Source of the DNA: Clostridia bacterium DTU084
Lineage (GTDB): Bacteria; Bacillota; DTU084
DNA length: 35,498 nucleotides
Direction: 5' to 3'
Assembly: GCA_001512905.1 (NCBI GenBank)
Contig: LFTB01000066.1
Span: 1 to 35,498, forward strand
This document shows, in pieces, positions 6,285-35,498 of the stretch; within the stretch, counting starts at the first letter, position 1; each line of letters starts with the position of its first letter. A program made the position numbers and the translations under genes. The notes beneath the pieces were generated by a model. That model worked only from the letters and a program-made list of their open reading frames with translations, was not told the origin of the DNA and made no database searches.

Positions 6285-8002
6285 GTAAGCGAAAAAAGAA
6301 GAAAGAAGCGAAGAAAAAGGAGATTTTGGTTTCAGTAGAGAACCTGCAGACCCGAGCAGCCGTAATTGAAGACGGAAAGCTGGTAGAGATGTACGTAGAG
6401 CGTACTCTTCACCAGCAGGTCGCAGGAGGAATCTACAAAGGAATCGTGAAAAACGTGCTGCCTGGCATGCAAGCAGCTTTTGTTGACATCGGTTTGGAAC
6501 GCAACGCATTTCTCTATGTTGACGATATCCAGACCCAAAATAAGACCAAGGGCAAAGCCCGGATTTCTGAGATGCTCAAACCTGGCCAGCAGTTGATCGT
6601 TCAGGCTTTGAAGGAGCCTATGGGTACTAAAGGGGCAAAGATCACAAGCCAGCTGAGCATCCCCGGACGCTATCTCGTATACATGCCTGATGCAGGATAC
6701 ACAGGCATCTCCCGCCGGATCGAAAGCGATGCTGAGCGGGAGAGGCTCCGGGAAATAGCTGAGCGCTTGCGGAAGCCCCATGAGGGCCTCATTGTCCGCA
6801 CTGCAGCCGAAGGGCAGAAGGAACGGGAACTGAAGCGGGATTTGGTTTTTCTGCGGAAGCTGTACAACAAGATCAAGAAAAAAGCCAAGAAGACCAAAGC
6901 GCCAGCTCTCCTCTACAGGGATCACGATCTCGTCTACAGGTTAATGCGGGATACTTTATCTGAAGATATTGCCTCCATTCAAATCGACAGCGAAGCAGTC
7001 TACAAAAAAATAGTGGAGGCAGCCCGCACCCTCTCTCCCCGGCTGCGGAAGCAGGTCAGCCTTTATACTGGCAAAGGGCCTCTCTTTGAAAAGTACGGCA
7101 TCGAACAGGAACTTGCCAAGGCCCTCAAAAGAAGAGTGTGGCTTGACTGCGGCGGTTATCTGGTTGTGGACCAGACTGAAGCCCTGACTGTAATCGATGT
7201 GAATACAGGCAAATTTGTGGGCAGCACAGACCTTGCATCAACAGTTTTGAAGACCAATTTACAAGCGGCGGAAGAGATCGCCAGGCAATTGCGTTTGCGC
7301 AATCTTACTGGTATTATTATCGTGGACTTCATAGATATGGATACAGATGAAGACCGCAAGCTGGTGCTCAAGAAACTGGAAGAGCTTGTCGAGGCAGACC
7401 GGGTGAAAACCAATATCTTGGGCTTCACAAGGCTGGGACTTGTGGAAATAACCAGGAAAAAGGTTCAGGAAGGTTTAGGCGAGGTCTTTCAGAAGTCCTG
7501 CCCCTATTGCGAAGGGACTGGGAGGATCCTCTCTGAAGAGTCCATGGCCATCCAGGTGGAAAGGCAGCTCCGCCAGTTTTTAGCCCACAGCACCATGGAG
7601 GCAGTGCTCATTGGCGTGCATCCCCAAGTTGCAGCCATGCTCATCGGCTCCGGTGGCAGCAACCTGGCCCGCTTGGAGGAGGAGCTGAACAAAAAGATCT
7701 ACATTAAAGGCTGCGACGCCTTTCACGCTGAAGAGATGAAAATTATTTCAGCAGGCACAAGGAAAGAAGTTGAAAAGGCAGCGCTGCCTGTGGAAGTTGG
7801 GGAAAAACTTGAAGTTACCATCGAGCAGCCGCACCTTGCAAACAAACAGAACGGCATCGCGCGGCTGGAAGGCTACATCATCGATGTGGAGGGAGCAGGC
7901 AAAAAGCTGGGACAAACTTTGACAGTAGAGATTGTCAAAAGAACCCGCACCTACGCTCGAGCAAAAATTTGCAGTAAAGAAGTCGGAGGGCAAAAACAAT
8001 GA
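6281..8002 (+). CDS. rng: Ribonuclease G/E family protein
   Basis: A 573-residue endoribonuclease of the RNase E/G family, the length of RNase G without the long degradosome scaffold of RNase E. After a lysine-rich N-terminus comes an S1 domain (about 47-125). The catalytic DNase-I-like domain carries the metal-binding aspartates D306 (in VIDVNTGKFVG) and D349 (in IIIVDFIDMD). The zinc-link motif CPYC with EGTGR (C407 and C410) would join subunits into the active dimer or tetramer. It processes single-stranded AU-rich RNA, including rRNA precursors. It starts at TTG 6281 inside the preceding stop and ends with an ATGA overlap onto fhs, so it appears to share a transcript with the folate genes, an unusual pairing. 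Confidence 0.95.
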   Translation: MSKRKKKKEAKKKEILVSVENLQTRAAVIEDGKLVEMYVERTLHQQVAGGIYKGIVKNVLPGMQAAFVDIGLERNAFLYVDDIQTQNKTKGKARISEMLKPGQQLIVQALKEPMGTKGAKITSQLSIPGRYLVYMPDAGYTGISRRIESDAERERLREIAERLRKPHEGLIVRTAAEGQKERELKRDLVFLRKLYNKIKKKAKKTKAPALLYRDHDLVYRLMRDTLSEDIASIQIDSEAVYKKIVEAARTLSPRLRKQVSLYTGKGPLFEKYGIEQELAKALKRRVWLDCGGYLVVDQTEALTVIDVNTGKFVGSTDLASTVLKTNLQAAEEIARQLRLRNLTGIIIVDFIDMDTDEDRKLVLKKLEELVEADRVKTNILGFTRLGLVEITRKKVQEGLGEVFQKSCPYCEGTGRILSEESMAIQVERQLRQFLAHSTMEAVLIGVHPQVAAMLIGSGGSNLARLEEELNKKIYIKGCDAFHAEEMKIISAGTRKEVEKAALPVEVGEKLEVTIEQPHLANKQNGIARLEGYIIDVEGAGKKLGQTLTVEIVKRTRTYARAKICSKEVGGQKQ

Positions 8003-9636
8003 ATGACTTAGAGATCCTGCAGAACAGGCAGCCTCTTCCCATAGGTGAGATCGCGGCACAGCTGGGCTTAGGAGAAGAGGATCTGGAGTATTACGGCAAA
8101 TACAAGGCCAAAGTTCACCTGGACGTGTTGGCCAAACCTGCAAAGGGAAAATTAATCTACGTTACCGCCATCAACCCCACCCCTGCAGGAGAAGGGAAGA
8201 CCTGTACAGCCATCGGCCTTACCCAAGCTTTAGGGAAACTGGGAAAAAAAGCAACTTGTTCTTTGCGAGAACCTTCCTTGGGCCCCACCTTCGGCATGAA
8301 GGGTGGAGCCACAGGTGGAGGTTACGCCCAGCTGGTTCCCATGGAGGATATCAACCTCCACTTCACAGGGGACATGCACGCAGTGGCTGCAGCCCATAAC
8401 CTCCTTGCAGCACTGGTGGACAACCACCTCTTCAGAGGCAACAAGCTGGGCTTGGATCCCAGAACCATCACCTGGCGGCGGGTTCTGGACATGAACGACC
8501 GAAGCCTCAGGGAGATCATCACAGGCGTGGGCAGCATGGTCCGGGAAAGCGGCTTTGACATCACAGCTGCGTCAGAAGTGATGGCCATCTTGTGCCGTGC
8601 GCAGAGCTTGGAAGACCTCAAAGAGAGGCTGGGGAAGATCTTTATCGGCATGGCTAGTGGCGGCCCGGTCTGGGCTAAAGATTTAGGTGCTGCAGGTTCC
8701 ATGGCGGCGCTTTTGGTAGATGCCATTATGCCGAACCTCGTGCAGACTTTGGAAGGGCAGCCTGCTTTTGTCCACGGCGGTCCCTTTGCCAACATCGCCC
8801 ACGGCAACAGCAGCGTGCTCGCCACCAAGATAGGCTTGCGCCTTGCAGACTACGTAGTTACAGAAGGCGGCTTTGGCGCAGATTTGGGCGCTGAGAAATT
8901 CTTCGACATCATCTGCCGCGACGAGCTGAAGCCGCAAGTTGCGGTGGTTGTGGCTTCAGTCCGGGCTTTGAAGATGCACGGGGGACTCGAGAAAGCTGCC
9001 CTCGGAGAGCCGGACCTCGAAGCCTTAAGACGGGGAACTGCCAATCTGGACCGGCACCTTGAGAATTTGAAAAAGTTCGGTCTGCCCACAGTTGTGGCCA
9101 TCAACCGCTTCCCAACAGACAGCGAGCAGGAGCTGGACTGGCTCTTGAAGCACTGCCAGAGCCGAGGCGCAAGGGCTGCCATCTCCGAAGTTGTTTCAAG
9201 GGGCGGCGCAGGGGGAGTGGAGCTGGCTGAGGAAGTGCTGGCTGCCTGCGAAGAGCCGAACCATTTCCAGCCCCTCTATTCCTTGGATCTGCCCATTGAG
9301 GAGAAGCTGGAGATTCTGGCCCGGGAGATCTACAGGGCAGAGAAGGTGGAATACACTAAAGCCGCGAAAAAGCAGCTGGCCCGCTGGAAAGATTTGGGAG
9401 GAGACAAACTTCCTTTGTGTGTGGCCAAAACCCAGTATTCTTTCTCAGACAATCCCAAGCTCCTTGGAGCGCCAACTGGCTGGACCCTCACTGTCCGGGA
9501 GGTGCGGGCAGCTTTCGGTGCAGGCTTTATCATCCCTCTGACAGGCGAGATCATGACCATGCCTGGCCTTCCGAAACAGCCAGCTGCAGAGAACATAGAC
9601 ATCACACCAACTGGCCGAATCACAGGCCTGAAGTAG
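7999..9636 (+). CDS. fhs: Formate--tetrahydrofolate ligase
   Basis: A 545-residue cytoplasmic enzyme that joins formate to tetrahydrofolate with ATP, giving 10-formyl-THF; this is the entry of formate into the methyl branch of the Wood-Ljungdahl pathway. The phosphate-binding loop TPAGEGKT is at residues 61-68. Other family signatures are SLREPSLGPTFGMKGGATGG, the following MEDINLHFTGD and the C-terminal TGEIMTMPGLP. The length is close to the usual 555-560. The ATG overlaps the rng stop by four bases. The next two enzymes in the operon (folD and the pterin methyltransferase) act on later folate intermediates, so the order reflects a pathway. Confident call. Confidence 0.97.
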   Translation: MNDLEILQNRQPLPIGEIAAQLGLGEEDLEYYGKYKAKVHLDVLAKPAKGKLIYVTAINPTPAGEGKTCTAIGLTQALGKLGKKATCSLREPSLGPTFGMKGGATGGGYAQLVPMEDINLHFTGDMHAVAAAHNLLAALVDNHLFRGNKLGLDPRTITWRRVLDMNDRSLREIITGVGSMVRESGFDITAASEVMAILCRAQSLEDLKERLGKIFIGMASGGPVWAKDLGAAGSMAALLVDAIMPNLVQTLEGQPAFVHGGPFANIAHGNSSVLATKIGLRLADYVVTEGGFGADLGAEKFFDIICRDELKPQVAVVVASVRALKMHGGLEKAALGEPDLEALRRGTANLDRHLENLKKFGLPTVVAINRFPTDSEQELDWLLKHCQSRGARAAISEVVSRGGAGGVELAEEVLAACEEPNHFQPLYSLDLPIEEKLEILAREIYRAEKVEYTKAAKKQLARWKDLGGDKLPLCVAKTQYSFSDNPKLLGAPTGWTLTVREVRAAFGAGFIIPLTGEIMTMPGLPKQPAAENIDITPTGRITGLK

Positions 9637-9649
9637 GAGGGGGACAGGC

Positions 9650-10444
9650 ATGATAATTGTAGGAGAGTTAATCAACACCAGCCGCAAAGCTATGGCTGAT
9701 GCGGTAAACAGGCGGGATGAAGGTGAAATCTGCGCTGTAGCCCAGAGGCAGGCAGATTCCGGCGCCGCCTACATAGATGTGAATTGCGGCACTTTTTTGG
9801 AAGAAGAGGAGGAACTGCTTCCCTGGCTGGTCCGCATTATCCAAGAGCAGGTGGACCTGCCCCTTTGCCTTGACAGTCCTAATCCCAAGGCCCTTGCCAA
9901 GGCCTTGGAAGTGCACAGAGGCAAAGCCCTCATCAACTCCATCAGCGGCGAAGAAGAGCGCTTTGCACAAGTTTTGCCCTTGGTGAGAGAGTCAGGGGCT
10001 TCAGTAATTGCCCTCTGTATGGACGATGAGGGAATAGGCGAGGACGCTGCTTCCCGCCTCGAAGCAGGAAAAAAGCTGGGAGAGAGGCTCCTGAACGCAG
10101 GTATAGAATCTGAGCGGATTTTCTTCGATCCCCTTCTGCGGCCTGTGTCCACAGAAAGCGAAGCAGGACAGGTTGCCTTGGAAACCATCGCAAGGCTAAA
10201 ACTAGCTTTTCCTCAAAGCCACATCATCTGCGGCCTGAGCAATATCTCTTTTGGACTGCCCAAGCGCAGGCTCCTCAACCGCACATTCCTCTCCATGGCA
10301 GTGGCAAGGGGCCTGGACAGCGCCATTTTGGATCCCACAGATCCTGAGATCCGCCTCACCCTTTTGGCAGCAGAGGCGCTCTTGGGCAAGGACGAGTTCT
10401 GCCTGAACTATTTGAACAACATTAGGGAGCAGGAGGAAAACTAG
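9650..10444 (+). CDS. Methyltetrahydrofolate:corrinoid methyltransferase (pterin-binding, AcsE/MtgA-like)
   Basis: A 264-residue TIM-barrel protein of the pterin-binding family. It starts MIIVGELINTSRK, and the motifs AAYIDVNCGT, LCLDSPNPKAL, ALINSISGE, FFDPLLRPVS and GLSNISFGLP are those of methyl-THF methyltransferases. It has no cobalamin or homocysteine domain. Such enzymes move the methyl group of methyl-THF to a corrinoid protein: AcsE to the corrinoid iron-sulfur protein in acetogens, MtgA-type enzymes to a small corrinoid protein, and the central part of MetH to its own cobalamin domain. A small corrinoid protein follows two genes downstream and is the likely partner. GGAGGGGG precedes the ATG. 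I cannot tell an acetyl-CoA from a methionine or demethylation role by sequence alone. Confidence 0.88.
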   Translation: MIIVGELINTSRKAMADAVNRRDEGEICAVAQRQADSGAAYIDVNCGTFLEEEEELLPWLVRIIQEQVDLPLCLDSPNPKALAKALEVHRGKALINSISGEEERFAQVLPLVRESGASVIALCMDDEGIGEDAASRLEAGKKLGERLLNAGIESERIFFDPLLRPVSTESEAGQVALETIARLKLAFPQSHIICGLSNISFGLPKRRLLNRTFLSMAVARGLDSAILDPTDPEIRLTLLAAEALLGKDEFCLNYLNNIREQEEN

Positions 10445-11290
10445 ATGCAAATTTTGGACGGGAAAGCAACAGCCAAACAAATCCAAGGAGAGCTGTCAGC
10501 AGAGGTTCAAGCCTTGAAAGACAAGGGAATCCATCCCTCCCTGACAGTCATTCTGGTGGGCGACGATCCTGCAAGCCAGGTTTACGTGCGCAATAAAGAG
10601 CGCGCCTGTCAAAAGGTGGGAATAGAGTCCCGCACCATCCGCCTGCCGAAAGAAACCCAAGAGGCAGAACTTTTAAGCCTGATTGAAAAGTTGAACCGGG
10701 ACCCGGATGTACACGGGATTTTGGTTCAGCTTCCCCTGCCGGAAGGCATTTCCGAGGAGAAGGTAATCTGCACCATCTCGCCAGAGAAAGATGTGGACGG
10801 CTTCCATCCTGTCAGCATGGGCAGGCTCCTCCTCGGCCAGGATGGCTTCCGCTCCTGCACGCCCTACGGCATTATGGAGCTCCTCCGCCGCTATCAGCTA
10901 CCTATTGCGGGCCAGGAAGCTGTGGTTGTAGGGAGGAGCAATATTGTCGGCAAGCCCATGGCAGCCCTCCTTTTGGCAGAGAACGCAACTGTCACTGTCT
11001 GCCATTCCAGAACCCGGAACCTGGGAGAGGTAACCAGGCGCGCTGATCTTTTAGTTGTGGCAGTGGGCAAAGAAAACTTTGTGGGCAGGGAGATGGTAAA
11101 ACCTGGTGCTGTGGTCATAGACGTGGGAATAAACCGCACAGAAGCTGGCATCTGCGGTGATGTGAATTTCTCAGAGGTGAAAGAAGTAGCTTCTGCCATC
11201 ACCCCTGTGCCAGGCGGCGTCGGCCCCATGACCATCACCATGCTGTTGGCCAATACAATTCGTGCAGCGAGGAGGGCTTGCAGTGTCTGA
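10445..11290 (+). CDS. folD: Bifunctional methylene-THF dehydrogenase / methenyl-THF cyclohydrolase FolD
   Basis: A 281-residue enzyme that interconverts 10-formyl-THF, methenyl-THF and methylene-THF, linking Fhs to the methyl branch. The folate site has the Tyr/Lys pair Y47 and K51 in [15 protein letters not shown]. The Rossmann domain carries [17 protein letters not shown], and the C-terminal signature [18 protein letters not shown] is intact. The length is normal (about 280-290). The ATG follows the stop of the methyltransferase gene immediately, with GGAGG upstream, and the end overlaps the corrinoid-protein gene by eight bases. The cofactor (NAD or NADP) cannot be read with certainty. 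Confidence 0.97.
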
Positions 11291-11918
11291 TTTCAGTGCT
11301 ATAACCAAGGCGGTGATTGCAGGCAGGGCCAATGAAGTGAAAGAGTTCATCTCAGCTGCCCTGACCCAGGGAGCAGATCCTGGTCTGCTCATCAGCGAAG
11401 CTCTGATTCCCGGCATGAACACAGTCGGCGAGCGCTTTCGCAACAACCAGATGTATATTCCAGAGGTTCTGATTGCTGCCCGGGCAATGCAGAGCGGCCT
11501 AGCTGTGCTGAAGCCCCACCTGGTGGAACAAAATGTTCAGCCTGTTGGCAAAATCGTGCTTGGGACAGTAAAAGGAGACCTTCACGATATAGGCAAGAAC
11601 CTTGTGGGGATGATGTTCGAAGGGGCAGGTTTTGAGGTTATAGATTTAGGTGTGAATGTAGATGCGGAAAAGTTTGCTGCAGCAGTGGAGGAGCACGGGG
11701 CACAGCTCTTGGGCCTTTCCGCACTCCTTACAACCACCATGCCTCAAATGCAGAAAACCATCGCCGCATTGGAAGAAGCAGGCCTTCGCAAGAAGGTGTA
11801 CGTCTTAATCGGCGGTGCGCCTGTGACCCAGGAGTATGCTGAAAAAATCGGGGCAGACGGCTATGCGCCAGATGCAGCCTCAGCAGTTGTTAAAGCCAGG
11901 GAACTTTTGGGGATTTAG
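11283..11918 (+). CDS. Small corrinoid (B12-binding) methyl-carrier protein
   Basis: About 211 residues in the two-domain layout of MtbC/MtgC-type corrinoid proteins: a helical cap (about 5-85, with [12 protein letters not shown] and [12 protein letters not shown]) and a Rossmann-like cobalamin domain. The lower-ligand motif DLHDIGKN has its histidine near residue 101, and [13 protein letters not shown] and LIGGAPVT follow. It would carry a methyl group on cobalt between methyltransferases. The likely donor enzyme is the pterin methyltransferase two genes upstream. The frame is open from GTG 11262, but GTG 11283 has GAGGAGG at 11269-11275 with a 7-base spacer, so I use it. A homocysteine methyltransferase domain that lacks its own cobalamin domain lies at 33961 and is a candidate acceptor. 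A terminator follows at once. Confidence 0.9.
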
Positions 11919-12356: not shown

Positions 12357-12740
12357 AAATGACGTACGAAATCCTTTCGAGTGGCTGAGAAGAGCGCGGA
12401 GCGATCTTGCAATTGCAAAAAGCCTGATTTGGACGATTTGTGTTTTCACGCTCAGCAGGCAGCTGAAAAAGCGCTCAAGGGTGTTCTTGTGGCGCATGGT
12501 GCAGTTTTTCCGAGGAGCCATTCTATTGGACTACTGTTTGAATTAATTTCTAAAATACAAATCAAGGTACCTCAGGAATTAATGGAGGAAGCTAGTGAAT
12601 TGACAATTTACGCAGTACAAGCTCGCTATCCAGGTGACCATGTAGTAGACTTTGATGAATATCGGGAGGCTGCAGCAACAGCTGAAAAAGTTGTCCGGTG
12701 GGCGGAGGAACATGTGAAGAGATTCTCAGACAACCAATGA
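12349..12740 (+). pseudogene. HEPN-domain protein, frameshifted (toxin partner of the MNT gene)
   Basis: Two frames make up one HEPN protein of about 130 residues. ATG 12349, with GAGGGGAGGGA upstream, gives NPFEWLRRARSDLAIAK. The rest (KPDLDDLCFHAQQAAEKAL and onward) lies in the -1 frame and runs to the stop at 12738-12740. The junction is the five-A run at 12417-12421; one extra A would restore a continuous frame. The C-terminal half keeps an R-x4-H motif (RYPGDH), the active-site pattern of HEPN ribonucleases. As written, the first frame stops at 12546. Possible explanations are loss of one A (inactivation), an assembly error in a homopolymer, or ribosomal slippage. I favour inactivation because the partner module at the other end is also frameshifted. 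Confidence 0.83.
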
Positions 12741-23370: not shown

Positions 23371-23736
23371 ATGAAAAAATTTTCTGCTTCTAAACTAGCT
23401 AAAACTGTAAGAGCGAAAAGAAAAGAAAAAGGGTTAACCCAAGAACAATTAAGTGAGCTTACCGGTATAAATAGAGTAATGATCGGTCGCATTGAAAGAG
23501 AGGCTTTTATTCCTTCTATCGCTCAGTATGAATCTTTGGCTAAGGTACTTGAATTTGATCTTACTGATATGTTTGTTGAAAATCCAAAGAAGAATTCTTT
23601 TGTGGCCCTGCGCAGCCAAGCTTTAAGTGAGTCCGAAAAAGAAGGCGTAGACAAGCTTTTTGCCATGATGTTGGCTCTCAGGGAACAAATACTTTTAAGG
23701 AGCAAATTTGAAAATGAATCATTTAGTCGCTCTTAA
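23371..23736 (+). CDS. XRE-family HTH transcriptional regulator
   Basis: A 121-residue protein. Residues 8-62 form a helix-turn-helix of the Cro/CI (XRE) type (TVRAKRKEKGLTQEQLSELT, then INRVMIGRIEREAFIPS). The C-terminal half is helical and without a recognisable domain. It begins at ATG 23371 after a strong AGGAGG site (6-base spacer) and overlaps the ImmA gene. XRE regulators paired with an ImmA/IrrE protease are usually repressors cut by that protease under stress or in mobile elements. The operon has lower GC than its surroundings, a sign of transfer. Confidence 0.9.
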   Translation: MKKFSASKLAKTVRAKRKEKGLTQEQLSELTGINRVMIGRIEREAFIPSIAQYESLAKVLEFDLTDMFVENPKKNSFVALRSQALSESEKEGVDKLFAMMLALREQILLRSKFENESFSRS

Positions 23737-24592
23737 TGAAGTGCAGCTTGGAGAGATACGCAAGCTAGCTGAAGAAAAACGCCGTTTTTTAGGTTTTATA
23801 GGTGAAACGCCTATAGCCAATGATATCTTCACTATTCTTGATAATATTGGAATTTCATTGTTAGAATATCCGATAAGATCAGATGGAAAAAGATCAGCTT
23901 TTTCTGCAGCGCTTATGTATTCTACAGAAGGTAATAAAGAACTTGCTTTTATTGGGTTAAATACAGCCGACTATTTTGATAATCAAATTTTTGCTCTTGC
24001 TCATGAGCTGTATCATTTTTACACTAAGACCGGTTCTCACTTTAGCCGTTCTTCTGAAGAAGGGGATAATTTAATTGAAATAAAGGCAAATAGATTTGCT
24101 GCAGAGTTCTTGTTGCCAGAAAACACTTTGAAGAACATCGTTCTAACTGAATTTAAAACAACTTCCCTTGAGAACAAGCAATTCAAAACATTACTTCGCT
24201 TCATTGCGAGGTTGCATTGCACCTGGTGGCTTCCATACCGCTCGCTTGTTAGAAGATTAAAAGAAATTAATGGAATTTCTGACGAACAATATAGTAAATT
24301 GTACATGATTGATGAGCGAGATCAGGCTGGCGAATATTGGCGTACAGGTATGGCCATTAATGAAGAAGTATTTTCAAAGCTTAACAAGCCAACAAATAAC
24401 ATCGGTACTTCGCCAAAGAATATTGAAATAATTATTCGAAACTTTGAGGACCATCTAATCGACGAAGATAATTTCATGAAAACACTAGCCCTTTTTAATA
24501 AGAAACCTGATGATTTTGGCTATGAATTTGAAGTTTCTGCTGAAGATATAGATGAATTTGAAAGATATTTTAATAAGGGAGGTTGGCGATGA
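23714..24592 (+). CDS. ImmA/IrrE family metallo-endopeptidase
   Basis: About 292 residues. The zinc-protease motif HELYH (H99-H103 counted from TTG 23708) and a downstream EIKANRFAAEFLLP helix, which supplies the third ligand, are the family hallmark. The C-terminal 130 residues are less conserved and helical. Its likely role is cleavage of the cognate XRE repressor, switching on the operon. ATG 23714 or TTG 23708 could start it; AAGGAG at 23697-23702 serves either (spacers 11 and 5). It overlaps the XRE gene by about 23 bases and the next gene by four (ATGA), so all three are one transcript. Confidence 0.9.
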   Translation: MNHLVALNEVQLGEIRKLAEEKRRFLGFIGETPIANDIFTILDNIGISLLEYPIRSDGKRSAFSAALMYSTEGNKELAFIGLNTADYFDNQIFALAHELYHFYTKTGSHFSRSSEEGDNLIEIKANRFAAEFLLPENTLKNIVLTEFKTTSLENKQFKTLLRFIARLHCTWWLPYRSLVRRLKEINGISDEQYSKLYMIDERDQAGEYWRTGMAINEEVFSKLNKPTNNIGTSPKNIEIIIRNFEDHLIDEDNFMKTLALFNKKPDDFGYEFEVSAEDIDEFERYFNKGGWR

Positions 24593-28078: not shown

Positions 28079-28951
28079 ATGATCATCTATCTTGACGGCA
28101 AATTTGTTCCCGAAGAGGAGGCTAAGGTATCGGTCTTCGACCACGGCCTGCTTTACGGAGATGGCGTTTTTGAAGGCATCCGCGCTTACAACGGCAGGGT
28201 CTTTCGCCTTACAGAGCACTTGGTGAGACTTTATAACTCTGCAAAAGCAATTCTTTTAGAGATCCCCATGTCCCTAGAAGAGATGGAAGAGGCGGTACTG
28301 GAAACTCTCAGACGCAACAAGTTAAAGGATGCCTATATCAGGCTGGTTGTCACAAGGGGCAAGGGAGATTTGGGGCTGGATCCCAAAAAATGCTGCAAAC
28401 CTACTGTCTTCATCATTACAGATGCCATTTCCCTCTACCCTGAAGAAATGTATAAAAACGGTTTGAAAATAGTCACTGTTCCCACGAGGCGCAATGCCCC
28501 TGAGGCAGTGAATCCTAATATAAAGTCCCTGAACTACCTCAACAATATTTTGGCCAAGATCGAGGCTGCCAACGCTGGAGCCCAAGAAGCTATTATGCTG
28601 AACAACGAGGGTTATGTGGCAGAGTGCACAGGGGACAACATTTTCATCATCAAAGACGGCAAGATTTACACGCCCAGCACAGCTTTAGGAGGACTGCCTG
28701 GCATAACCCGCAGTGCAGTTATTGAACTGGCAAGGAAAATGGGTTATACTGTAGAGGAAACTTTCTTCACTCGCTATGACATATACACAGCAGACGAAGC
28801 TTTCCTCACCGGCACTGCTGCCGAGGCCATTCCTGTAGTGGAGTTGGATGGCAGAGCCATTGGCAACGGCAAGCCTGGGCCCATTACACAGGAGCTCATC
28901 GCAGCTTACAGGGAACTTGTCAACAGCGAAGGAACACCAATAGGAGAGTAA
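28079..28951 (+). CDS. ilvE: Branched-chain amino acid aminotransferase (class IV)
   Basis: A 290-residue PLP enzyme that transfers the amino group between glutamate and the keto acids of valine, leucine and isoleucine. It has [20 protein letters not shown] (20-39), the PLP lysine K149 in [34 protein letters not shown] and [12 protein letters not shown]-amino-acid aminotransferases share the fold, but the motif set favours IlvE. It is the first gene of an operon with hom and thrB; its stop overlaps the hom start by one base (TAATG). Confidence 0.92.
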
Positions 28952-31168: not shown

Positions 31169-32359
31169 ATGAAGACAATTGCACAGATTAATGAACGGAT
31201 AAAAAAAGGTGAAGCAGTAGTACTGACGGCAGACGAGGTTGTAGAATTCGCCGAGAAAAATGGCGTGGAGGCAGTGGCAAAAGAGGTGGATGTGGTAACC
31301 ACAGCCACTTTCGGTGCCATGTGCTCTTCCGGCGCTTTTTTAAACTTTGGCCATGCTGATCCGCCGATCCGGATGACGAAGATTTTGCTCAACGATGTGC
31401 CGGCCTATGGCGGCTTGGCTGCAGTGGATACTTATATTGGCGCTACAGAGTGCTCCCTCTCTGAGGGCATCAAATATGGCGGGGCTCACGTGATTGAGGA
31501 CCTTGTGGCAGGAAAGCCCATAAAGCTTGAAGCCACATCGCCTGGTACAGACTGCTATCCCCGCAGGGAGATTACCACTTATCTGACCTTGGACAGCATT
31601 AATCAGGCTTATTTGTACAATCCTAGAAATGCTTACCAAAATTACAGCTGTGCTGTGAATACTTCAGATAAGGTAATTCACACTTATATGGGCACTCTGC
31701 TGCCGAGAATGGGCAATGCTACTTACGCAACAAGTGGGCAGCTCAGCCCCCTTCTCAACGATCCTTACTACCGAACCATCGGTATGGGAACGAGGATCTT
31801 TTTAGGCGGTGGAATCGGTTATGTGGCCTGGGAAGGGACCCAGCATAATCCTCTAGCCAACCGGACGGAAAATGGTGTGCCCACAGCCGGCGCCGGTACC
31901 ATGGCGGTAATTGGCAATCTCAGAGGGATGAGCACGGAATTTCTCCGGGCTGCCACTTTCACAAATTACGGCACAACCCTTTACGTGGGCATTGGCGTTC
32001 CCATTCCTGTTTTAGATGAGGAGATGGCCCGCTTCGTCTGCGTGCGGGATGAGGAGATTGTAACAAACGTCTACGACTACAGCGTGGGCCGCCGCTCAAG
32101 GCCCTCTCTTGCACAGGTAAACTACAAGGAACTCCGCAGCGGTCAAATAGAAATCCAGGGCAAGAAGGTCCGCACAGCGCCCCTATCGAGTCTTGCCAAG
32201 GCGCAGAAAATTGCAGATCTGCTCAAAGGATGGATCGTGGACGGCAAGTTCACTTTGACAGAGCCCATAATGGGCCTACCCAAAAGCAGGGTGAACACAC
32301 CCCTTGACATAATCGGTCCGGATGAGATTCCTGTTGAGGAGGAAGAAGAAATTGGCTAA
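31169..32359 (+). CDS. Homocysteine biosynthesis protein (COG1900/DUF39, L-aspartate semialdehyde sulfurtransferase)
   Basis: A 396-residue protein of the DUF39/COG1900 family. Conserved cysteines are C52 in FGAMCSSGAFLNFGH and C129 in SPGTDCYPRRE, with a third at C95. In Methanosarcina acetivorans, genetic and biochemical work (Perona laboratory, from memory) showed that this family, with a NIL-ferredoxin partner, makes homocysteine directly from aspartate semialdehyde and sulfide through cysteine persulfide chemistry, without O-acyl- or O-phosphohomoserine. Both partners known from that system follow here. GGGGGAGGG lies upstream of the ATG, and the stop overlaps the next gene by eight bases. 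Length is normal. Confidence 0.93.
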   Translation: MKTIAQINERIKKGEAVVLTADEVVEFAEKNGVEAVAKEVDVVTTATFGAMCSSGAFLNFGHADPPIRMTKILLNDVPAYGGLAAVDTYIGATECSLSEGIKYGGAHVIEDLVAGKPIKLEATSPGTDCYPRREITTYLTLDSINQAYLYNPRNAYQNYSCAVNTSDKVIHTYMGTLLPRMGNATYATSGQLSPLLNDPYYRTIGMGTRIFLGGGIGYVAWEGTQHNPLANRTENGVPTAGAGTMAVIGNLRGMSTEFLRAATFTNYGTTLYVGIGVPIPVLDEEMARFVCVRDEEIVTNVYDYSVGRRSRPSLAQVNYKELRSGQIEIQGKKVRTAPLSSLAKAQKIADLLKGWIVDGKFTLTEPIMGLPKSRVNTPLDIIGPDEIPVEEEEEIG

Positions 32360-32762
32360 AAAGAGGGTTATCCTGATTTTCCCTGCCGCCTTGACTGAAG
32401 AAGCTCTAGTCTATAAATTGGTTAGGGATTATCAGCTTGCCATCAACATTTTGCGGGCAAAAATCACCCCTGGAGAAGAGGGCAGGCTGGTGATGGAAAT
32501 TTCCAACTCCACAGAAAAAGCAATAGAGCGGGGTTTGGATTATTTGCGCAGCCACGGCGTCTTGGTGGAGGAGCTGGGCCACGAGATCCGCATCGACCAG
32601 GACAGCTGCATCGACTGCGGTGCCTGTACGGGAGTCTGTCTTTCAGATGCCCTTAGCATCTCTGCCCCGGACTGGAAATTGAAGTTTGATAAAGAAAAAT
32701 GCATTCTCTGTGAGCTTTGTGTAAGTGCCTGTCCCACCAGGTCCATCAAGGTGGTTTTCTAA
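32352..32762 (+). CDS. NIL-domain ferredoxin (electron donor for homocysteine synthesis)
   Basis: About 136 residues. A NIL domain (about 5-75, RVILIFPAALTEEALVYKL) is joined to a two-cluster ferredoxin part with CIDCGACTGVC and CILCELCVSACP, enough for two [4Fe-4S] clusters. The pair COG1900 plus NIL-ferredoxin is the core of the anaerobic homocysteine pathway; the ferredoxin is thought to supply electrons that reduce the thio intermediate. The frame opens at 32322, but TTG 32352 follows AGGAGG (32336-32341, 10-base spacer) and gives MAKKRVILIF. It overlaps the previous stop. Confidence 0.92.
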   Translation: MAKKRVILIFPAALTEEALVYKLVRDYQLAINILRAKITPGEEGRLVMEISNSTEKAIERGLDYLRSHGVLVEELGHEIRIDQDSCIDCGACTGVCLSDALSISAPDWKLKFDKEKCILCELCVSACPTRSIKVVF

Positions 32763-32763
32763 A

Positions 32764-33483
32764 GTGGGCTACACTCAGCGTACGTACAGACAGATCACCA
32801 ATCCCCTTGGTTTGCATGCCTATCAGGTACAGGTAGGGGAAAGCGATCTCGCCATTTTAAGCACGTACCCTGAGCAGGCAGAAGCCAAAAGGCTGCTCTT
32901 GAAAGCTAGGAGGATTTTGAAAGCATATATGGCGCGCTGCTCTGAGTTTGAGGGCGCGCTTTCTCCATTGTCCCCTGATCCTGCAGCTCCCAGCCTGGTG
33001 CAGCAGATGCTCAGAGCTGGACAAGCTGCAAACGTGGGCCCCATGGCAGCAGTTGCCGGCGCTATTGCAGAATTTGTGGGAGAAGCGCTAGCTTCGCCTG
33101 AGGTGATCATAGAAAACGGCGGCGATCTTTATTTGCGCACCCAAAGGTCCAGAAACATAGCTCTCTTTGCAGGGAAAAACTCACCTTTCAGCTATAAGTT
33201 GGCTCTTGCCATAGACCCTGAAGAAACTCCTTTAGGAATTTCCACCTCATCTGGTACAGTGGGGCATTCTCTGAGTTTCGGCAGGGCTGACGCAGTAACT
33301 GTCGTCAGCTCCAACTGTGCTCTCAGCGACGCTGCAGCTACAGCTGTGGCCAATCTAGTGCAGGGGCCGAAGTCTATAGAGAATGCAATTGAAGCAGCCC
33401 AAAATATCCCTGAAGTTACTGGTGTGGTAATCGCTTGCGGTGAAAAACTGGGAGTTTGGGGAAAGATAAAATTAGTAAGGTAG
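32764..33483 (+). CDS. UPF0280 (COG2122) family protein
   Basis: About 239 residues. LGLHAYQVQVGESDLAI, AAVAGAIAEFVGEA, ENGGDLYLR and SSGTVGHSLSFGRADAVTVV are the signatures of UPF0280, a family related to ApbE flavin transferases. In methanogens a COG2122 protein assists sulfide assimilation into homocysteine and is encoded near the COG1900 gene; the exact reaction is not settled to my knowledge. The frame opens at GTG 32725, inside the ferredoxin gene, but GTG 32764 has AAGGTGG with a 9-base spacer and leaves one base between the genes. Confidence 0.9.
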   Translation: MGYTQRTYRQITNPLGLHAYQVQVGESDLAILSTYPEQAEAKRLLLKARRILKAYMARCSEFEGALSPLSPDPAAPSLVQQMLRAGQAANVGPMAAVAGAIAEFVGEALASPEVIIENGGDLYLRTQRSRNIALFAGKNSPFSYKLALAIDPEETPLGISTSSGTVGHSLSFGRADAVTVVSSNCALSDAAATAVANLVQGPKSIENAIEAAQNIPEVTGVVIACGEKLGVWGKIKLVR

Positions 33484-33495
33484 GAGGAGTTAACC

Positions 33496-33948
33496 GTGAT
33501 CAGACCATCCAGACTTGAAGATCGTGAGCGGATAATCGAGATCTGCCTCGCGTCCTTTTACGGTGTGAGCATAGATCACAACATTGAGGAAAAATTCGGT
33601 TTGCCTAAGGACAGCTGGCAGGAGAAAAAGCGCCGCAGTATAGAAAAGGAACTGGAAAAGCCCGAGTTGGTGTTTGTGGCAGAAGAGGATGGGCAGGTAG
33701 TTGGCTTTATCACCACGCAAATTGACGGCGACACAGGCAGGATTCCCAATCTCGGCGTAGACAGCGCCTATCGCGGCCGTGGCCTTGGCAAGGCACTGAT
33801 TGCCCATGCCCTGGATTTTTTCCGCCAACAAGGTTTGAAGCTTGCCCGCATCGAAACCTTAGATCAAAATGAAGTGGGAAAAAACCTGTATCCCAAAATG
33901 GGCTTTCAACAAGTTGCCCTGCAAATTCATTATGCTATGGAGCTGTAG
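33496..33948 (+). CDS. GNAT family N-acetyltransferase
   Basis: A 150-residue acetyltransferase with the acetyl-CoA-binding motif A region NLGVDSAYRGRGLGKALI, preceded by the beta strands VFVAEEDGQVVGFITTQ, and the C-terminal LYPKMGFQQVA. It begins at GTG 33496 after GGAGGAG. The acceptor is unknown. The gene lies between UPF0280 and the homocysteine methyltransferase with 12-base gaps on both sides, so it is co-transcribed with the sulfur amino-acid genes; whether it shares their pathway is not evident from sequence. Confidence 0.9.
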   Translation: MIRPSRLEDRERIIEICLASFYGVSIDHNIEEKFGLPKDSWQEKKRRSIEKELEKPELVFVAEEDGQVVGFITTQIDGDTGRIPNLGVDSAYRGRGLGKALIAHALDFFRQQGLKLARIETLDQNEVGKNLYPKMGFQQVALQIHYAMEL

Positions 33949-34844: not shown

Positions 34845-34870
34845 AAGAGGCAGGCCTTAGCCTGCCTCTT
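34845..34870. terminator. Bidirectional terminator between the homocysteine operon and the minus-strand MNT gene
   Basis: A perfect 11-bp stem (34845-34855 with 34860-34870) and a 4-base loop. On the minus strand it is followed by TTTTATT, a good terminator tail; on the plus strand only a short T stretch follows. It touches the minus-strand stop codon. Confidence 0.85.
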
Positions 34871-35189
34871 AGACAATCTTGATGCCGGTGCGGATGATTT
34901 CGCTTGCAAAGGGATGGTCTTCAGAAAACTCTGAAGGCAGAAAAGGATGGGGCTCGATCCGTAAATCTACCTTACGGCGAAGCTTCAACAGGGAGAAGGT
35001 ATCGTCAATTGAATCACCACTGAAGTCTTTTGCCACTACAGCGATGTCTATATCGCTGTCTTCATGGGCTGTACCTTTCGCGTAAGAACCAAAAAGGTAG
35101 AGGTCTGTTAATTGGAACTTTTGCTGTACTGCAGCCGCATATTTCCGAGCAATATCTAAGATGATGTTTGGAGTTTTTGGATTAACCAT
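34869..35189 (-). CDS. MNT-type nucleotidyltransferase (second HEPN/MNT pair)
   Basis: A 106-residue minimal nucleotidyltransferase. The motif LFGSYAKGTAHEDSDIDIAVV gives G34-S35 and the metal ligands D46 and D48; VDLRIEPH supplies the third acid, D75. The start has GAGGAG nine bases upstream. It overlaps the HEPN gene before it by 34 bases, in the order HEPN then MNT. It resembles the gene at 12027 in fold but belongs to a different subgroup by sequence, so the two are not recent copies. Confidence 0.87.
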   Translation of the reverse strand: MVNPKTPNIILDIARKYAAAVQQKFQLTDLYLFGSYAKGTAHEDSDIDIAVVAKDFSGDSIDDTFSLLKLRRKVDLRIEPHPFLPSEFSEDHPFASEIIRTGIKIV

Positions 35190-35498
35190 TTTCTCAACTC
35201 CTCTATGTTACGGATTTGTTCTTCAGCATATTTTTTGGTGCATTTTTGATAAAAATCCAGTTTATAATCAGGGTATCTAGCCCTTATATTGAAACTGGTT
35301 ATCAAGTCTAGTAAATCTTCTTGACCTTCATCAAGTTCAACATTTGCCATTTCTGCTAGTTTCAGTAGGTTATGTGAAAAAGGTGGTTGAGTATTATTGA
35401 CTTGCACGAAATGTGCTTTTAGTAGTTTTTCAATTATTGATTCCACTGCACAAATCCCTTGTAAATCCATATTTTAGAAGGATTTTAGCCCCTCGATG
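35156..35498 (-). pseudogene. HEPN-domain protein, frameshifted and cut by the window edge
   Basis: From the right edge one minus-strand frame reads AKILLKYGFTRDLCSG and stops at 35430. Another frame then gives IIEKLLKAHFVQVNN, PPFSHNLLKLAEMANV and IRARYPDYKLDFYQKCTKKY to the stop at 35156-35158. Joined, they form a normal HEPN protein whose first residues lie outside the window; the shift lies near 35433-35450. ATG 35470 could start a 104-residue product, but it would lack the first helix. The usual R-x4-H motif reads RYPDYK, a variant without the histidine that I believe occurs in this subgroup. Confidence 0.78.

What the first reader, a model, noticed from the sequence alone, without database searches (positions are those of the whole stretch)
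31169..33483. Anaerobic homocysteine synthesis set in a sporulating Firmicute, attached to the hom-thrB branch point
COG1900/DUF39, NIL-ferredoxin and UPF0280 genes follow each other with overlaps of 8 bases and a gap of 1 base, and are fused to an operon that starts ilvE-hom-thrB. The set is best known from methanogens, where it makes homocysteine directly from aspartate semialdehyde and sulfide. Here the gene that removes the same aspartate semialdehyde (hom) is co-transcribed, so threonine and methionine branches would be set together. No metA, metB, metC or metY-like gene is in the window. All expected cysteines of the three proteins are visible.
Basis: partly seen in the sequence, partly recalled or inferred. 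Interest (0 to 1): 0.7.

Follow-up and report, generated by a model that had tools for sequence, protein, structure and literature searches.

The report
Known anaerobic homocysteine operon, with backup
A bacterial operon carries the known anaerobic gene set that makes homocysteine, the precursor of methionine, straight from aspartate semialdehyde and sulfide; the same genome also encodes the ordinary O-acetylhomoserine route, so this is a common arrangement for the phylum rather than a sole or new pathway.

Summary
The gene set is real and correctly placed: HcyBio/DUF39 (31169-32359), NIL-ferredoxin (32352-32762) and UPF0280/COG2122 (32764-33483), behind ilvE-hom-thrB. The operon runs on through a GNAT protein into a stand-alone homocysteine S-methyltransferase (to 34830). 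The set matches the characterised L-aspartate-semialdehyde sulfurtransferase system. DUF39 keeps both family cysteines (C52, C129) and the ferredoxin all eight.

(1) The genome holds a complete metY-metX O-acetylhomoserine operon on another contig, so the set is not the only route to homocysteine; half of the DUF39-bearing relatives also have an acyl-homoserine route. (2) The set is ordinary in this phylum: UPF0280 is in 137 of 399 sampled genomes, almost always beside DUF39. (3) The only near-invariant cysteine of UPF0280 (126/130) is serine here.

Missed: the only MetH-like pieces found in the genome are three separate genes, all in this window, and no MetE was found, so methionine synthase is probably split, as in Phaeobacter. 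The same modules sit next to DUF39 in many relatives.

Verdict: new member of a known pathway. The hom-thrB fusion is uncommon but recurs. The C160S change is a useful test of what COG2122 does.

The parts
28079..28951 (+). ilvE, branched-chain aminotransferase (class IV), first gene of the operon
   Evidence: PF01063 229 bits; NF006185 497 bits
28951..30258 (+). hom, homoserine dehydrogenase with C-terminal ACT domain; removes aspartate semialdehyde to homoserine
   Evidence: NF004976 558 bits; PF00742, PF03447, PF01842
30239..31153 (+). thrB, homoserine kinase (GHMP); start chosen at TTG 30239, overlaps hom by 20 bases
   Evidence: TIGR00191 289.5 bits; start and spacing
31169..32359 (+). 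DUF39/COG1900a/HcyBio, L-aspartate-semialdehyde sulfurtransferase catalytic subunit; C52 and C129 intact; no CBS domain
   Evidence: PF01837 520 bits; cysteine conservation 98/98; AlphaFold2 model pLDDT 93.5
32352..32762 (+). NIL-ferredoxin, 2x[4Fe-4S], proposed electron donor/regulatory subunit; TTG start
   Evidence: PF09383 55.5 bits, PF00037; eight Cys invariant in 79
32764..33483 (+). UPF0280/COG2122, ApbE-like accessory protein; family cysteine replaced by Ser160 (codon 33241-33243)
   Evidence: NF003323 272.5 bits; PDB 2o34 by sequence and fold; Ser160
33496..33948 (+). GNAT acetyltransferase of unknown substrate, conserved at this place in the same-family genome G001
   Evidence: PF00583 72 bits; L051 71% identity
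33961..34830 (+). HMT: stand-alone homocysteine S-methyltransferase, equals the N-terminal module of MetH; conserved C208, C271, C272 (presumed zinc ligands)
   Evidence: PF02574 257 bits; metH positions 2-311; Cys 18/18
9650..10444 (+). MeTr: methyltetrahydrofolate:corrinoid methyltransferase, equals the folate module of MetH
   Evidence: PF00809; NF005719 328.7 bits; metH positions 339-588
11262..11918 (+). Corrinoid protein, equals the B12 module of MetH; D-x-H-x-x-G at 106-111
   Evidence: PF02607 + PF02310; metH positions 650-838; D106/H108/G111 conserved
7999..9636 (+). fhs, formate-tetrahydrofolate ligase, start of the one-carbon cluster that may supply methyl-THF
   Evidence: PF01268 830 bits
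10445..11290 (+). folD, methylene-THF dehydrogenase/cyclohydrolase
   Evidence: PF02882 + PF00763

Best explanation
The operon encodes the known anaerobic homocysteine synthase (L-aspartate-semialdehyde sulfurtransferase) together with the homoserine/threonine branch enzymes and the homocysteine-methylating module of a split methionine synthase. Proposed working: Asd makes aspartate semialdehyde. Part is reduced by Hom to homoserine for ThrB and MetX. Part is taken by DUF39, whose persulfidated Cys52 (equivalent to M. acetivorans Cys54) delivers sulfur to the aldehyde. The resulting thioaldehyde is reduced to homocysteine with electrons from the NIL-ferredoxin, whose NIL domain may sense methionine. 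UPF0280 assists by an unknown, ApbE-like action that here cannot depend on the usual cysteine. The HMT protein then methylates homocysteine using methyl-corrinoid from the corrinoid protein and MeTr encoded upstream, fed by fhs/folD. The same cell also has MetX-MetY, so homocysteine has two routes, plausibly used under different sulfide or redox conditions. Shown here: gene content, order, conserved residues and presence of both routes. Inferred from published work: all catalytic steps. Inferred only: division of labour and joint regulation.
For: Family assignments far above cut-offs for DUF39, NIL-ferredoxin, hom, thrB and HMT. Conserved catalytic cysteines, with C52/C129 spacing identical to Cys54/Cys131 of MA1821 (PMC12068725). 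UPF0280 present in 18/18 DUF39-bearing relatives and strongly in only 1/43 others, Fisher p = 1.4e-14. Same gene order across the phylum. Genetics in D. vulgaris shows that DUF39, NIL/ferredoxin and COG2122 are all needed for homocysteine while homoserine is not an intermediate (PMC5764234). Asd-LysC-DapA genes present. The only MetH modules found are HMT, MeTr and corrinoid in this window, with no MetE, plus an AcsV/RamA-like corrinoid reactivase. HMT/MeTr/corrinoid recur on the same strand beside DUF39 in 36/30/28 of 129 phylum regions, while fhs, folD, metX, metY, asd and spoIVA recur in none.
Against: A complete metY-metX route exists, so need for the set is unproven. Ser160 replaces the near-invariant UPF0280 cysteine, which could mean relaxed function. 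The genome is a fragmented 86.5%-complete assembly, so absences (metE, full metH, metA) are weak. No expression or enzyme data exist. MeTr and corrinoid lie 22 kb away beside fhs/folD and could serve acetogenesis or methylotrophy instead.
Confidence: 0.8

Rival explanations
1. The set is largely redundant or in decline here: MetX-MetY makes most homocysteine, and the loss of the UPF0280 cysteine is an early sign of relaxed selection.
For: Complete metY-metX. Ser160 shared by window and G001, both of which have metY-metX.
Against: DUF39 and NIL-ferredoxin show no loss at catalytic positions. Ser160 is the only position of at least 90% conservation where UPF0280 deviates. All eight operon genes are intact, with GC3 of 0.48-0.60. 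Eight other relatives with both routes keep the cysteine.
Confidence: 0.15
2. One reading: the set is the organism's sole homocysteine route, in place of acyl-homoserine pathways, and is balanced against threonine by co-transcription with hom.
For: Close spacing with hom-thrB; nine of 18 DUF39-bearing relatives lack any acyl-homoserine route.
Against: metY-metX operon in this genome, on a contig with matching composition and conserved in G001.
Confidence: 0.04
3. The COG1900 protein transfers sulfur to another aldehyde, as the COG1900d protein MMP16 does for coenzyme M, and not to aspartate semialdehyde.
For: COG1900 members differ in substrate (PMC12068725).
Against: Scores only 129 bits against a 364-bit cut-off for TIGR03287/MMP16. 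Carries the COG1900a cysteines and a separate NIL-ferredoxin. Neighbours are hom, thrB and homocysteine methyltransferase.
Confidence: 0.03

Closest known systems
L-aspartate-semialdehyde sulfurtransferase of Methanosarcina acetivorans (MA1821-MA1822) with MA1715 (COG2122)
   Same: Same three protein families, same pair of DUF39 cysteines at the same spacing, NIL plus two-cluster ferredoxin.
   Different: MA1821 carries a C-terminal CBS domain (PMC12068725); the window protein has only HcyBio. Here the three genes are one operon with hom-thrB and HMT. UPF0280 has Ser at the family cysteine.
DUF39 / NIL-ferredoxin / COG2122 set of Desulfovibrio vulgaris (DvMF_1464, DvMF_0262, DvMF_0044)
   Same: Same families; genetic proof of homocysteine synthesis without homoserine (PMC5764234).
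   Different: D. [quoted passage not shown] The D. vulgaris locus numbers show its three genes to be scattered.
Split (three-part) methionine synthase of Phaeobacter inhibens / MtgC-MtgD-MtgE of Ruegeria pomeroyi
   Same: PF02574, PF00809 and PF02607+PF02310 modules as three proteins; RamA-like reactivase in place of the MetH C-terminal domain (PMC5764234, PMC12478193).
   Different: Marine alphaproteobacteria there; here a sporulating, anaerobic-type genome with HMT joined to the homocysteine operon and MeTr/corrinoid inside an fhs-folD cluster. The corrinoid protein scores best against MtgC models but below their cut-offs.
O-acetylhomoserine sulfhydrylation (MetX-MetY)
   Same: Both genes present in this genome in one operon.
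   Different: Unlinked to the window; a separate route from homoserine.

Membership tests
L-aspartate-semialdehyde sulfurtransferase (DUF39/COG1900a set) | HcyBio domain over its full length | tested here: met
   PF01837 positions 1-349 of 349, 520 bits
L-aspartate-semialdehyde sulfurtransferase (DUF39/COG1900a set) | Two conserved cysteines (Cys54 essential, Cys131 helpful, M. acetivorans numbering) | tested here: met
   C52 and C129, 98/98 aligned; numbering from PMC12068725
L-aspartate-semialdehyde sulfurtransferase (DUF39/COG1900a set) | Partner with NIL domain and 2x[4Fe-4S] ferredoxin | tested here: met
L-aspartate-semialdehyde sulfurtransferase (DUF39/COG1900a set) | COG2122/UPF0280 partner | tested here: met
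   fold match to DVU1097 2o34, E 9e-21
L-aspartate-semialdehyde sulfurtransferase (DUF39/COG1900a set) | Near-invariant cysteine of UPF0280 (conserved, but not known to be required, so not treated as disqualifying) | tested here: not met
   Ser160; 126/130 have Cys
L-aspartate-semialdehyde sulfurtransferase (DUF39/COG1900a set) | Homocysteine formation from aspartate semialdehyde and sulfide | not testable with these tools
   needs enzyme assay or genetics
Methanogenesis marker 16 / coenzyme M synthase (COG1900d) | TIGR03287 cut-off and ferredoxin inserted in the COG1900 domain | tested here: not met
   129 of 364 bits; no Fer4 in the DUF39 protein
Split MetH | Separate homocysteine, folate and B12 modules and no full-length MetH or MetE | tested here: met
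   Three separate metH-matching genes, no full-length MetH and no MetE found; genome 86.5% complete
Split MetH | Dedicated use of the three modules for methionine | not testable with these tools
   MeTr and corrinoid could serve other methyl transfers

The most novel reading that the evidence does not exclude
In this family COG2122 works without its one near-invariant cysteine (C160S, also in G001 and twice elsewhere in the phylum), so its role in homocysteine synthesis is not cysteine persulfide relay but an ApbE-like reaction, in a lineage that has kept both homocysteine routes and tied the sulfide-dependent one to the threonine branch and to a split methionine synthase.
Probability: 0.3. 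Interest if true: 0.45.

Novelty: new member of a known kind. Interest (0 to 1): 0.3.

Why it matters
The pathway is known, but what COG2122 does and how the enzyme takes up sulfur are open. A lineage with a natural Cys-to-Ser change in COG2122, and a compact operon holding much of the branch from aspartate semialdehyde to methionine, gives a convenient test system. It also shows that having DUF39 does not imply lacking the acyl-homoserine route: half of the DUF39 carriers checked have both. Auxotrophy and pathway predictions should not treat the two as alternatives.

Tried and rejected
Riboswitch or T-box control of the operon or of metY: no Rfam hit in window or L001. Contamination as the source of metY-metX: rejected on composition and on G001 having the same pair. 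MMP16-like function: below cut-off. Negative association of DUF39 with acyl-homoserine routes: not seen, 9/18 against 27/43, Fisher p = 0.40. hom in G001 as a test of the hom-thrB link: no hom and no DUF39 found in that 72%-complete genome, whose relevant contig starts inside NIL-ferredoxin, so uninformative. Fold relatives of DUF39 in the PDB: none, while the UPF0280 control found 2o34 and ApbE. Promoter and terminator scans gave counts no higher than shuffles. The papers on MA1715 and on D. alaskensis are not held.

Full report
Observation. DUF39 (31169-32359) covers the whole PF01837 'Homocysteine biosynthesis enzyme, sulfur-incorporation' model at 520 bits. The next gene starts at TTG 32352 and has a NIL domain and two Fer4 domains. 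The third, from GTG 32764, passes the UPF0280 model NF003323. Gaps along ilvE-hom-thrB-DUF39-NILfer-UPF0280-GNAT-HMT are -1, -20, +15, -8, +1, +12 and +12. The same-family genome G001 has NILfer-UPF0280-GNAT-HMT in the same order at 68-80% identity.

Known pathway. [quoted passage not shown] PMC12068725 names MA1821-MA1822 L-aspartate semialdehyde sulfurtransferase and states that Cys54 is essential and Cys131 is not. The window protein has C52 and C129, the same spacing, invariant in 98 aligned proteins; the ferredoxin's eight cysteines are invariant in 79. The window DUF39 lacks the CBS domain of MA1821.

The genome has a second route. Contig C117 carries metY (432 aa, TIGR01326 650 bits against a 495 cut-off) and metX (370 aa, NF001209 457 against 331) whose ends overlap. 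Composition (r = 0.978 with the window, against at most 0.87 for regions of other genomes) and the matching pair in G001 argue against misbinning. No metA was found. Among 61 relatives, 18 have DUF39; nine of these also have metX or metA together with metY, and nine have neither. Presence of DUF39 is not associated with absence of the acyl route (p = 0.40). M. acetivorans also tolerates loss of the set without a methionine phenotype (PMC12068725).

How common. UPF0280 occurs in 137 of 399 genomes sampled from the phylum. In 129 regions examined, 127 have DUF39 and 114 NIL-ferredoxin on the same strand (tblastn with the window protein, so NIL is undercounted).

Link to threonine genes. hom lies on the same strand in 2 of the 129 phylum regions (L193, L199), downstream with thrB. 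ilvE-thrB-DUF39-NILfer-UPF0280-HMT without hom occurs in three genomes of another family (L243, L258, L273), and ilvE-DUF39 in three more. A Marinimicrobia genome (L082) has DUF39-NILfer-UPF0280 followed, by reading the ORFs, by an aspartokinase, a second aspartokinase fused to homoserine dehydrogenase, an aspartate-semialdehyde dehydrogenase, thrB and threonine synthase. The linkage is uncommon but has arisen or persisted in several lineages. Joint regulation is a reasonable inference; no riboswitch or T-box was found.

Methionine synthase. A whole-genome search with the metH model found only three strong matches, all in this window and each a separate gene: HMT (model 2-311), MeTr (339-588, at 9650-10444) and corrinoid (650-838, at 11262-11918). 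MetE was not found. An AcsV/RamA-like reactivase is on C71. This fits the split synthase described in Phaeobacter (PMC5764234) and Ruegeria (PMC12478193). The three modules recur next to DUF39 in about a quarter of phylum regions, whereas fhs, folD, metX, metY and spoIVA recur in none, so the association is specific. I found no paper in the held library that describes it.

UPF0280 cysteine. The motif P-L-G-I-C-T-S-S-G-T-x-G-H-S has Cys in 126 of 130 phylum proteins; the four exceptions, all Ser, are the window, G001, L207 and L242. D. vulgaris DVU1097 (2o34) has Cys. In the 61-protein alignment it is the only position of at least 90% conservation where the window protein differs. As two genera share it, sequencing error is unlikely. 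A published suggestion, reported in PMC5764234, is that COG2122 takes part in persulfide modification; if it acts here, it does so without this cysteine. The fold is ApbE-like.

DUF39 fold. AlphaFold2 gives a confident model (pLDDT 93.5, pTM 0.90). Foldseek finds nothing convincing in the PDB (best E 0.04, TM 0.09), and sequence search finds nothing either. The UPF0280 control found its relatives at E 9e-21. This is a property of the family, not of this locus.

Verdict. A correctly spotted member of a known pathway. The surprising part of the claim (replacement of the classical route) does not hold; the hom-thrB link is uncommon but not unique.

Noticed in passing
window 33241-33243 (UPF0280 residue 160): The single near-invariant cysteine of UPF0280 is serine here and in G001, L207 and L242; 126 of 130 phylum proteins have Cys.
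   Followed up: partly
window 31169-32359: The confident AlphaFold2 model of DUF39/COG1900 has no match in the PDB by Foldseek, with a working control: apparently an unsolved fold for an enzyme family of a known pathway.
   Followed up: partly
window 7999-11918: fhs - methyltransferase - folD - corrinoid protein cluster, resembling the methyl branch of the Wood-Ljungdahl pathway.
   Followed up: partly
L099:2104-6320: metX, DUF39, NIL-ferredoxin and a metY/metB-like gene in one cluster (Bacillota isolate Ch109): both homocysteine routes side by side.
   Followed up: no
L082:9989-19347: Marinimicrobia operon apparently holding the route from aspartate to threonine plus the homocysteine set; genes past UPF0280 other than hom and thrB named by reading.
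   Followed up: no
window 34869-35470 and 12381-12740: Nucleotidyltransferase (PF01909) and HEPN (PF05168) pair on the minus strand just after the operon, and another HEPN gene further upstream.
   Followed up: no
window 23371-24592: HTH_3 regulator followed by an IrrE/M78 peptidase-like protein, a pair often seen in mobile elements or stress regulators.
   Followed up: no
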